Assembly: GCF_002775205.1 (NCBI RefSeq)
Contig: NC_036459.1
Coordinates: 1,707,088-1,771,087, forward strand
Length of the DNA stretch: 64,000 nucleotides
Direction: 5' to 3'
Origin: Xiphophorus maculatus
Lineage: Eukaryota > Chordata > Actinopteri > Cyprinodontiformes > Poeciliidae
The notes beneath the pieces are model-generated. The model searched no databases. It was not told the origin of the DNA and worked only from the letters and a program-made list of their open reading frames with translations. Within the stretch, counting starts at the first letter, position 1; each line of letters starts with the position of its first letter. A program made the position numbers and the translations under genes. This document shows, in pieces, positions 38,511 through 41,500 of this stretch.

Positions 38511-41500
38511 TCAGCCTCTCAGCCCTCCGTCCAGGGTCAGAGACCCAAACCTGCAGGAGAACCAGAACTCAGATTAACCTGGCCCATACACGGATCAGAA
38601 ACGACCAGAACCTGAGCACAGGGTGGCATTCAGAGGTCTGGTCCTGATCCGGTTCTGACCCAAACAGAACCAGTAACGCATGGGGAAGCGGACCTCTCCA
38701 GGAAGTGGTTGTTCTCCGCCAGCTCCTTCATGACTCCCTCCATCTCCTCCTTCAGCTTCTTCATCCTGAGGAAGAAGAACAGCAGCAAGTTACCGGATCG
38801 ACCCGGTTCTGGAGTGGGTCGGCGGTCCGATGGGCTTACCCCAGCGTCATCTCCACCAACGTGTTGGGGCTGAGGTACTCCTGGGCCTTCATCGCATTCG
38901 GAACCACAATCTTCTGAGGAAGCTGTTCCTGCAGCTGCAACCAACACAGGCTCAGATGGTTACCATGGCAACCAGAGAGAGAGGAGGCGCCTCAGCCTCA
39001 GGTTACCATGGCAACCAGAGGACGAGGAGGCAGGACGGTTCCGGGTCGGGGTTCACCTTGACGGCCCGGTCCAGCAGCATGGTCACCTCCTTCTCCACGC
39101 CGATCAGCTGACCGGTCAAACCGAGCAGCTGCTTCCGAATATGGTGGACCTTCCTGCAGGCAGAGGGAGAACCGGGTCACCGGACCGGAACCAGGACCAG
39201 GACCAGGACCAGGGGACTAGGACCGTACCTCATCCACTCCTCGCTCTTGGATATGAAGAGTCGGTACTTCATGGCGCACTCGTCGGTGAACAGAGAGCGA
39301 GCTTTGCCAGCATGGATCACCAACTTCTGCCTGTTGGAGGAACCGGGTCAGAACCAGAACTAGTCAGAACCAGACCCACTCATCAGATTAAATACAAATC
39401 AAATGAATATTTAATGCTCTGTCAGATTTCTCTGGTTGTTCTGTAGAACCGGGCCGATTCGAGCCTGGTCAGAACAGAACCAGAGATGTTTCCTGGTTCC
39501 TTCATGTTTCATTACTTACTTATCAAACTTGTGGATCTGCTCCTCATTGTATGGAAGACCTGAAAACACAGAGGAGGTGAGGGGTCAGCGGTGACCTCAG
39601 AGGTCAGCGGTGACCTCCAGGTTGTCCCGTCCTGCTGTGGAGGGAAGCGGGTCTTACGTCGTTCTGCTTTGTCCTTCTTGAATTGCTGGTAGATGGCAGT
39701 GATGGCGTCCAGCAGGACCTTGATTTTCTCAACGCTGCAGACAGAAACACAACGGCGTCATTAAAAACCCCAGTCCCTCCCTGGCCCCTCCCCGCCCCCT
39801 GCAGCCTTACTTCCTGTCCTCGGGGTGCGTCCCGACCTGCAGGGTCCAGGTGTCGGTCAGAATCGCTAGAGGCAGAAACTTGCTCTTGATGTCCTGCGTT
39901 GTTCTCTCGATGGGATCCAGAGAACCCGAGATCTGTAGAGACATTCTCAATCAGAACCAGAAACCCGACAGCCTACACAGAACCACCTGAATGGACCGGC
40001 AGCCGCAGCCGACCAATCAGAACCCAGAGATTTCCCTCTGGGAAGCAGAACTATGTGTTCAGGTCTGAGATGTTGTAGATATTTTTCAGTTTTTCACTAA
40101 TAAAACAGTTCAGAAAACTGCATTCTTTGAGTTAATTTAATTTCTTTAATTTTAATTTCTTTACATTTTTTCCACAACTGATCCACAACAAATGGTGCAA
40201 ACTGTCCATGCATATGGAATAAATGACTCGTTTATAAACCACTGTGAGATTCTGAGTTCAGTCCAGAACATTCAGAGCAAAACTAATTCACACATTTTAA
40301 TCAGATTTTTCCCTTAAAGGTCCAATGCATGGAACTACTGATGGAAACCACTAAACGCTTCTCTTGCCACACCAGGTTTCTTTGTTAATCTACATATTTA
40401 GTTGAGTTAATAGGTTAAATATTTCGTTTGGAAGCCAGAGGACTCACCTTGAGGGCCTTCTTGTGCAGGTCTGCCATGTCTTCGTACTCCGAGGTCAGCA
40501 GGTTGGTCTGCAACAGAGCCTCCAACCTGCAACAGAACAAGCCTCCAGTCAGTCACAGAGCTGGACCAGCCGGTTCTGGTTCTGGTTTCAGTGGGTCAGA
40601 CTCACAGGTGTTTTGCCTTCTCCAGATGCTCCGTGCAGATGCTGCACAGGCGGAAAACCTCAGACTTCTTGTGCAGAATTTCATTGTAGTCTTCCCTCAT
40701 CAGCTCTCTGTGGGGATCAACACGTTACAGCACTGGCAAGTTTGGCCTTCCAGGCCACCGTACATCACCACACGCTGCAGCATGGGCCTTCCAGGCCACC
40801 ATAGGAGTCACACTCACATCAGTCCCCTGACTCCTTTCCTCACCAGCTCCTGATAAACCAGCAGAGACTCGGAGGTTTTCCACAGGTGGCCCACATCTCC
40901 AGCAAAAGTCTACAGGACAACAGCAGGAGTCAGAGAGGTCAAAGGTGAGTCAATGTGAGTGAACCATTACCTTTTGGGTCAGAGCGGTCAGACACATTTT
41001 CATTTTGTTCCACATCAACATCTTGAATGTTCTTGAATTGTCCTAGAATTTATTCTAGCCGTATCTTGTTCTAGCGTAGCTTAGTGTAACCAGCTGTACC
41101 TTAGAATAGCTAGTCATACCTTAGCGTAGCTAGCTGTACCTTAGTGTAACCAGCCATACCTTAGCATAGCTAGCTGTATCTTAGCGTAAACAGCCGTACC
41201 TCAGCCGTACCTTAGCAGAGCTAGCCGTACCTTAGCGTAGCTGGCGTCCAGGTCCAGGTCGTAGCGCGGCTGGACCTTTGGTGGACACGCTGTGGAGACA
41301 AAGCTGCTGATGAAGTGTGAAGGTCAGTGTGAAGGTCAGACGGAGGTCAGGTCTTACGGTCTTCGAAGATGAGGCCGACGGTGGCGACGACCTCACGGCT
41401 CACCACCATGATGGGGTTGTCCCTGGAGGTCTTGGGGAACGTCTTGGCCTGGCGGTTGGGTTCCAGGACGAGGCGCCGGCCCTCGTACAGAAGCTCCTGG

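What the first reader, a model, noticed from the sequence alone, without database searches (positions are those of the whole stretch)
41060..41242. Ladder of duplicated splice donors in a 20-bp [13 protein letters not shown] at TBK1 exon 9
The repeat unit straddles the exon 9 end: 12 exon bases (AGCTACGCTAAG) plus 8 intron bases with the donor. About nine units follow at nearly exact 20-bp spacing, and six intronic copies still carry an intact GTA donor. The splicing machinery therefore faces a row of near-identical donors. Using the copy at 41211 adds 20 nt (frameshift); a 60-nt shift would be in frame but the copy at that step has lost GT. This may be slipped duplication seeded by a splice junction, a possible route to intron growth or noisy splicing of an innate immune kinase.
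Basis: partly seen in the sequence, partly recalled or inferred. Interest (0 to 1): 0.8.

Follow-up and report, generated by a model that had tools for sequence, protein, structure and literature searches.

The report
Splice-donor [13 protein letters not shown] beside TBK1 exon 9
A TBK1 gene, probably of a fish, carries a 20-base repeat copied from the end of an exon into the next intron, which lines up six spare splice sites behind the real one; similar arrays sit at other exon ends in the same genome, so this looks like a recurring by-product of repeat expansion that splicing must cope with.

Summary
Confirmed and widened. On the minus strand, TBK1 coding exon 9 (41289-41231) ends inside a 20-bp [13 protein letters not shown] (41242-41058) that fills over half of the 321-bp intron. 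The exon copy equals the consensus of the intronic copies at 20 of 20 positions. Six intronic copies keep GT, besides the true donor. The array has one match in the 704-Mb genome, itself. The frame remark needs correcting: an 11-bp part-unit shifts the register, and a TGA at +28..30 stops every copy donor from +31 on; +20 frameshifts.

It fits the 'mirages' of amphioxus genes, [17 protein letters not shown] duplications of exon-intron boundaries; human IFI6 is a vertebrate parallel. I inspected 50 of 54 listed tandem-donor arrays of this genome; in 13 the first copy is an exon end, 10 with independent protein-family support, one a DUSP16-like gene in this window. In 12 of 13 the unit contains exon bases.

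Most likely: slippage duplicates a junction, copies pile up in the intron, the exon-side donor keeps working. Which donors are used is untested. Arrays overlap TBK1 junctions no more than their share of the window predicts (1 of 33; 3.2%).

The parts
41231..41289 (-). TBK1 coding exon 9 (59 nt); last 12 bases AGCTACGCTAAG (S-Y-A-K) form the exonic part of the repeat unit
41058..41242 (-). 20-bp [13 protein letters not shown] straddling the exon 9 / intron 9 boundary: exon copy, 6 full intronic copies, an 11-bp part-copy at 41202-41192 and two decayed copies at the far end
41229..41230 (-). authentic GT donor, AAG|GTACGG (inferred from the reading frame)
   Evidence: the alignment to human TBK1 runs without a gap across the junction
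41209..41210 (-). copy donor +20, AAG|GTACGG, same 9-mer as the true donor; use would frameshift to a stop in exon 10
41201..41203 (-). in-frame TGA at +28..30 that truncates any product using a donor from +31 onward, and the retained intron
41198..41199 (-). copy donor +31, GAG|GTACGG
41158..41159 (-). copy donor +71, AAG|GTATGG
41138..41139 (-). copy donor +91, AAG|GTACAG
41118..41119 (-). copy donor +111, AAG|GTATGA; multiple of 3 but behind the TGA
41098..41099 (-). copy donor +131, AAG|GTACAG
40910..41230 (-). TBK1 intron 9 (321 bp), more than half of it array
24288..24386 (-). second array of the same kind in this window: 21-bp unit GTGAGGAGGGGGGGCAGCCAG straddling the end of a DUSP16-like first coding exon; donor copy at +21 is in frame and would insert VRRGGSQ
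24379..24606 (-). coding part of the DUSP16-like first coding exon (rhodanese domain); intron 24378-24193
   Evidence: PDB DUSP16 E 3.5e-26; Pfam Rhodanese

Best explanation
The array is a junction-born [13 protein letters not shown], a 'mirage'. A duplication of about 20 bp spanning the TBK1 exon 9 / intron 9 boundary (12 exon + 8 intron bases) was amplified into the intron by slippage or unequal exchange, later in 40- and 60-bp steps, and the intronic copies have since decayed, fastest at their two CpG sites. The exon copy is held by protein coding. Shown: anatomy, exon copy = consensus, no second copy found in the genome, CpG-biased decay, the same architecture at other exon ends of the same genome. 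Inferred: the order of events, the slippage mechanism, and that the spliceosome normally uses the exon-side donor. Occasional use of +20 or later donors would give frameshifted or stop-containing mRNA, expected to be degraded or to give a TBK1 cut off after its kinase and ubiquitin-like domains. I take this to be mostly a tolerated by-product, not a regulator.
For: Exon 20-mer equals the intronic consensus at 20 of 20 positions, while no other place in the window scores above 14 of 20 in register and the best of 16 other AAGGTA sites scores 11. Human TBK1 reads DASMAKAITG where this gene reads DASYAKTFAG, so the coding end of the exon is older than the array. 22 changes in 143 intronic sites; 11 of 28 CpG sites changed against 11 of 115 others, Fisher P 0.0004; 10 are C-to-T or G-to-A at CpG. 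One match to the array in the genome (the tool warns that it skips very common words); unit with up to 2 mismatches: 6 places, 4 in this array and 2 elsewhere, equal to the 2 of the reversed control. Recurrence: 13 of 50 inspected tandem-donor arrays start at an exon end, 10 with family support. With spacing fixed on the intron side, exon bases -12..-4 match the second copy at a mean of 6.3 of 9 for the 13 own exons against 2.8 of 9 for 338 swaps; at least 5 of 9 in 12 of 13 against 38 of 338. Amphioxus mirages are reported not to disturb regular splicing (section 16 of PMC3087553).
Against: No RNA data: use of the first donor is inferred. By a recalled position matrix and U1 pairing energy the +20 donor is identical to the true one and +71 scores slightly better, so strength alone does not explain first-donor use. 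No related genome could be compared, so the events are not dated. Arrays cover 3.2% of the window and 1 of 33 TBK1 junctions lies in one, which is what random placement predicts: this does not show that junctions are favoured birth sites. The homology does not clearly extend upstream of the 12 exon bases (shuffle P 0.10). In one of the 13 arrays (thrombospondin/COMP-like) the unit does not include exon bases (2 of 9). Three of the 13 genes are named from recall only.
Confidence: 0.82

Rival explanations
1. A dispersed or pre-existing intronic [13 protein letters not shown] happens to abut the exon, and the resemblance to the exon end is chance or donor consensus.
For: Fish genomes carry many GCTAGC-like short repeats (recalled); 29 merged arrays in this window alone. 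Part of the resemblance, AAGGT, is donor consensus.
Against: No excess of the unit elsewhere over the control (no array by TRF in the 8-kb stretches around the two outside places); 20 of 20 identity of exon copy and intronic consensus, including 9 exon bases outside the donor consensus; human residues conserved at this exon end.
Confidence: 0.04
2. The ladder is a functional dial: the copies recruit U1 and divert a regulated share of TBK1 transcripts to stop-containing forms, lowering TBK1 dose or making a truncated kinase+ULD protein that dampens interferon signalling.
For: All six copy donors lead to a stop. Zebrafish TBK1 isoforms tv1 and tv2 are called dominant negative (start of abstract of PMC7554342 in the listing), and tv3, with intact kinase and ULD but incomplete coiled coils, lowers TBK1 and IRF3 by the paper's title (passages). 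IFI6 transcripts use downstream repeat donors (PMC4526556 passage).
Against: Those zebrafish isoforms arise by exon skipping, not at this junction. Half of the changes are ordinary CpG decay; folding of the array is ordinary (z -0.99). The same architecture sits in unrelated genes (dynamin, NUP205, ETS), so no immune theme.
Confidence: 0.08
3. Splice donors are preferred birth sites of [14 protein letters not shown] in this lineage, for instance because co-transcriptional structures or repair at exon ends favour short duplications.
For: 13 of 50 tandem-donor arrays start at an exon end; AGGTGAG triplets give 531 matches against 145 reversed and CCAGGTGAG 169 against 7; 13 distinct AGGTGAG loci on C1-C3 against 1 reversed (listings); two such arrays in 64 kb.
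Against: Searching by donor motif selects for donors; at least 2 of 20 single AGGTGAG sites in the window are donors, one of them the DUSP16-like site itself, so the base rate is not small. For AGGTAAG and AAGGTAY the match counts are below the reversed controls (74 v 179; 57 v 171). 1 of 33 TBK1 junctions equals array coverage.
Confidence: 0.2
4. Incipient intron gain: a copy in the array will become a new exon or the exon end will move downstream, as proposed for amphioxus mirages.
For: Model in PMC3087553 section 16; tandem duplication of AGGT segments is described as a genuine route of intron gain (passages of PMC3443670).
Against: Acceptors among the copies were not examined; the frame is closed by TGA at +28, so moving the exon end is not tolerated here without further change.
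Confidence: 0.04

Closest known systems
Amphioxus 'mirages' (Adh3, globins BflGb6/BflGb9, troponin C; similar repeats in PGBD5)
   Same: [17 protein letters not shown] tandem duplications spanning an exon-intron boundary, many but not all copies with splice signals, unit lengths from 10 bp (Adh3: 10-72 bp) (PMC3087553 section 16; PMC3902484 passage)
   Different: Vertebrate (taken to be a fish) instead of cephalochordate; donor side; short spacings of 15-33 bp in the 13 cases here; polymorphism, somatic instability and RT-PCR not available here
Human IFI6 (6-16) [13 protein letters not shown], Turri, Cuin and Porter 1995
   [quoted passage not shown] the paper itself is not held)
   Different: In IFI6 two downstream repeat units are used as donors and give protein isoforms (PMC4526556 passage); in TBK1 every alternative meets a stop and use is unknown; unit sequences were not compared
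Tandem repeats at exon-intron boundaries of human duplicated genes
   Same: [13 protein letters not shown] expansion that can lie at the exon-intron boundary, with novel introns reported (PMC2812944 passages)
   Different: Recent segmental-duplication paralogs in primates; here a conserved gene, with no second TBK1 found
Intron gain by tandem genomic duplication of AGGT segments
   Same: Tandem duplication of sequence that carries splice signals (PMC3443670 passages; PMC4974935 title and abstract start in a listing)
   Different: There a new intron arises from exon sequence; here an existing intron is lengthened
Intronic [14 protein letters not shown] of fish genes (Sparus aurata GH introns 1 and 3)
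   Same: Tandem repeats with copy-number polymorphism in introns of a fish gene (passage of PMC3045353)
   Different: The passage does not say whether those repeats straddle a splice junction; not tested here

Membership tests
[quoted passage not shown]
Mirage (amphioxus-type boundary [13 protein letters not shown]) | each unit holds both exon-like and intron-like sequence | tested here: met
   12 + 8 bp; exon copy = consensus 20 of 20; own exon 7 of 9 at -12..-4; the 11-bp part-copy holds 3 exon-like bases only
Mirage (amphioxus-type boundary [13 protein letters not shown]) | many but not all copies keep splice signals | tested here: met
   GT kept in 6 of 9 intronic copies
Mirage (amphioxus-type boundary [13 protein letters not shown]) | regular splicing not disturbed | not testable with these tools
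   no RNA data
Mirage (amphioxus-type boundary [13 protein letters not shown]) | copy-number instability between haplotypes | not testable with these tools
   one assembly held; the 40/60-bp periods only suggest past turnover
IFI6-type multi-donor [13 protein letters not shown] | several repeat donors used in real transcripts | not testable with these tools
   no RNA data
Dispersed repeat family | unit present in many places of the genome | tested here: not met
TBK1 | kinase + ULD + CCD1 architecture and best match to TBK1 | tested here: met

The most novel reading that the evidence does not exclude
In this [17 protein letters not shown] genome, splice donors are a standing source of new [14 protein letters not shown]: thousands of junctions may carry or have carried such ladders, introns grow outward from their exons by them, and the splicing machinery keeps to the exon-side copy by a positional rule rather than by donor strength, with leak-through giving stop-containing TBK1 mRNA.
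Probability: 0.15. Interest if true: 0.75.

Novelty: new member of a known kind. Interest (0 to 1): 0.5.

Why it matters
The mirage paper suggests a general phenomenon in cephalochordates; the vertebrate parallels I met are IFI6 and some human duplicated genes. Finding such arrays at 13 exon ends of one vertebrate genome, two of them within 64 kb, gives a natural set of experiments: identical donors in a row behind real exons, in genes where a shift would often break the protein. That makes first-donor choice, intron growth by repeats and the cost of decoy donors testable with ordinary RNA-seq.

Tried and rejected
Dispersed-repeat origin: rejected (TRF found no array in the 8-kb stretches L041 and L042 around the two outside places). 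Upstream extension of the unit further into the exon: not significant (P 0.10). RNA structure hiding the copies: fold no better than shuffles (z -0.99, 35 of 200 shuffles as good). Related sequence elsewhere in the window: blastn of the array against the masked window printed nothing, and the pattern matched only inside the array. A TBK1 paralog for comparison: only a weak match elsewhere, 30% identity, E 0.26. Excess of tandem donors over reversed motifs: uneven (531 v 145; 169 v 7; 74 v 179; 57 v 171), and match counts are dominated by a few long arrays, so I do not claim it. Of the loci in the listings, 4 of 14 were not inspected (three AAGGT-type 5-bp repeats and C89:2466); the listings are cut short, so arrays beyond them are unseen. 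Set aside before counting 13: L056 (mGluR-like exon end, Pfam ANF_receptor, hardly tandem) and L068 (Kelch-like exon end, Pfam below cut-off, not tandem); L047, L050, L052 and L081 had open runs but no family support where tested (L050 and L081; L047 and L052 not tested). Of the 13, three are named from recall: SSNA1-like (Pfam below cut-off and no PDB match), IQGAP-like (no Pfam family, one unrelated PDB match at E 0.47), TPR-like (no Pfam family; PDB not searched). For the PLPP7-like gene the exon itself matched nothing and the support comes from downstream exons; for the EDEM-like gene the exon alone matched nothing and the support comes from three joined exons. A first version of the exon-homology test with spacing chosen on both sides was replaced by the stricter one.

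Full report
What is there. The gene on the minus strand around 38.7-43.2 kb is TBK1: the joined peptide of exons 7-11 matches solved TBK1 at E 3.4e-51 over 155 residues, and the joined coding exons match the Pfam kinase, TBK1_ULD and TBK1_CCD1 models. I mapped 18 coding segments. Coding exon 9 is 59 nt (41289-41231), ends ...GCC AGC TAC GCT AAG in phase 0, and joins exon 10 at 40909; intron 9 is 321 bp. If an upstream non-coding exon exists, the exon number would shift by one.

The array. From 41242 to about 41058 the sequence is a 20-bp [13 protein letters not shown]: exon copy AGCTACGCTAAG|GTACGGCT, six full intronic copies, an 11-bp part-copy, and two decayed ends; 173 of the 321 intron bases lie in it. 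Its register relative to the exon is exact: the consensus of the intronic copies equals the exon copy at 20 of 20 positions; over the rest of the window the best in-register match is 14 of 20 (2 places), and the 16 other AAGGTA sites reach at most 11. The coding end of the exon is conserved with human TBK1 (DASMAK against DASYAK), so it was there first. Of 143 intronic sites compared, 22 differ from the exon copy; 11 of these lie in the two CpG pairs (11 of 28 CpG sites against 11 of 115 others, Fisher P 0.0004), 10 being the expected C-to-T or G-to-A decay. That gives direction: intronic copies decayed from an exon-like ancestor. With a recalled rate of a few times 1e-9 per site and year, 15% divergence would mean tens of millions of years, but CpG decay and copy turnover make this no more than an order of magnitude.

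Donors and reading frame. GT is intact at the true site and at 6 of 9 intronic copies. By a recalled position matrix the +20 copy equals the true donor (3.9), +71 (4.4) and +111 (4.0) are as good or better, +31 is 3.1, and +91 and +131 (0.1) are weaker through loss of the +5 G; by a U1 duplex energy all six lie between -5.7 and -6.2 against -5.8 for the true one. The true donor is of middling strength among the 15 TBK1 donors scored (2 of 17 contexts were not found). Splicing from +20 would add 20 nt, shift the frame and end after 29 new residues in exon 10; from +31 on, and for the retained intron, a TGA at +28..30 ends the protein after 9 new residues. The steps divisible by three are +51 (GT lost) and +111 (GT kept but behind the stop), not +60. 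So every alternative donor predicts either mRNA decay or a protein of kinase plus ubiquitin-like domain without the coiled coils.

Is it a repeat from elsewhere? No sign of it. The 211-bp stretch has one match in the 704-Mb genome, itself (the tool warns that it skips simple repeats and very common words). The 19-base unit with up to two mismatches occurs 6 times, 4 of them in this array; the reversed control pattern occurs twice. TRF finds no array in the 8 kb around either outside place.

Is it alone? No, and this changes the finding. I searched the genome for three donor-like motifs within 5-30 bases of each other: AGGTAAG (74 matches, all listed, 14 loci), AAGGTAY (57 matches, all listed, 16 loci), AGGTGAG (531 matches, listing ends in C3, 13 loci) and CCAGGTGAG (169 matches, listing ends in C20, 11 further loci). 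I inspected the sequence upstream of the first copy in 50 of these 54 loci: 10 of 14, 16 of 16, 13 of 13, 11 of 11 (the TBK1 locus is one of them). In 13 of 50 the first copy is the end of an open coding run in a tandem array: TBK1; a DUSP16-like gene at 24386-24288 of this same window (PDB DUSP16 E 3.5e-26); an ETS-domain gene with an array of about 2 kb (Pfam 8e-28); a GH47/EDEM-like gene (2.4e-18 on three joined exons); NUP205 (PDB 1.8e-20); a thrombospondin/COMP-like gene (2.1e-6); dynamin (1.9e-13); a RING protein (1.1e-6); a PLPP7-like gene (PAP2 in downstream exons, 1.1e-12; gene name recalled, and the exon itself matched nothing); an ankyrin gene, SHANK-like by recall (Ank 4.8e-5); and three named from recall only (SSNA1-, IQGAP- and TPR-like).

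Do their units contain exon? With spacing set from the intron side alone, the nine exon bases at -12..-4 (outside the donor consensus) match the second copy at a mean of 6.3 of 9 in the 13 arrays, against 2.8 of 9 when the exon is swapped for one of 14 other TBK1 junctions or one of the other 12 arrays' exons (338 swaps); 12 of 13 reach 5 of 9 against 38 of 338. The exception is the thrombospondin-like array (2 of 9). A first version with spacing chosen on both sides gave 71 of 99 positions in 11 arrays. Spacings are 15 to 33 bp, a multiple of three in 4 of 13, so reading frame does not shape them. In the DUSP16-like gene the second donor is in frame and would add VRRGGSQ.

What this does not show. 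Arrays of period 9 or more cover 3.2% of the window, and 1 of 33 TBK1 junctions lies in one, so TBK1 by itself is at chance level for position. At least 2 of 20 single AGGTGAG sites of the window are donors, one of them the DUSP16-like site itself and one the inferred donor of TBK1 exon 12, so 13 of 50 is not by itself proof of preference. Match counts against the reversed motif go both ways: 531 v 145 and 169 v 7 for the two AGGTGAG searches, 74 v 179 for AGGTAAG, 57 v 171 for AAGGTAY; by locus on C1-C3 it is 13 against 1 for AGGTGAG. I therefore hold that junction duplications happen and persist, not that junctions are favoured.

How it most likely works. A short duplication across the junction leaves the exon intact and a spare boundary in the intron; slippage or unequal exchange then multiplies it on the intron side, where copies are nearly free as long as the exon-side donor is still chosen. 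Copies inside the exon would break the protein and are removed by selection. Choice of the exon-side donor is inferred from protein conservation and from amphioxus data reported in PMC3087553 (section 16 read); strength does not explain it here. IFI6 shows that leak to following copies can happen in a vertebrate (PMC4526556 passage). Truncated TBK1 isoforms dampen interferon signalling in zebrafish, but arise by exon skipping (PMC7554342: start of abstract in the listing, passages).

Comparison. The anatomy meets the definition of mirages; splicing neutrality and copy-number instability could not be tested. In the listings I saw no report of mirages in a fish; those searches cover only open-licence papers and a limited set of words, only the listed rows were seen, and few papers were opened. 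Fish introns with [14 protein letters not shown] are in print (GH introns of Sparus aurata, passage of PMC3045353), but the passage does not place them at a junction.

Verdict. It is a new member of a known kind, made more interesting by its recurrence across this genome. Opened for background only: PMC2688266 (outline) and PMC5536018 (passages).

Noticed in passing
24288-24386 (minus strand): A second exon-boundary [13 protein letters not shown] in the same window, at the end of a DUSP16-like first coding exon; about half of its 186-bp intron is array, and the +21 donor is in frame.
   Followed up: yes
L044 (G000:C1:31947061 onward, +): ETS-domain exon ...RALRYYYDK followed by about 2 kb of 28-bp units containing the exon end CGCTACGACAAG and a strong donor; dozens of near-identical donors in a row.
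   Followed up: partly
43122, 41230, 39228 (minus strand): Three TBK1 donors (introns 1, 9, 15) share the same GTACGG start.
   Followed up: no
11841-12063 (+): 18-bp array, 12.4 copies, 98% matches, each unit with a donor-like ACAGGTACAA; translation of the upstream stretch was looked at, no exon was established.
   Followed up: partly
G000 C1-C3, listings: Distinct tandem AGGTGAG loci outnumber reversed-motif loci 13 to 1, though only 5 of the 13 are counted as exon-anchored; the origin of the others is open.
   Followed up: partly
L056 (G000:C1:31588555) and L068 (G000:C1:3899175, minus): mGluR-like and Kelch-like coding exons whose apparent donor is followed by further donor motifs without a clear tandem unit.
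   Followed up: no
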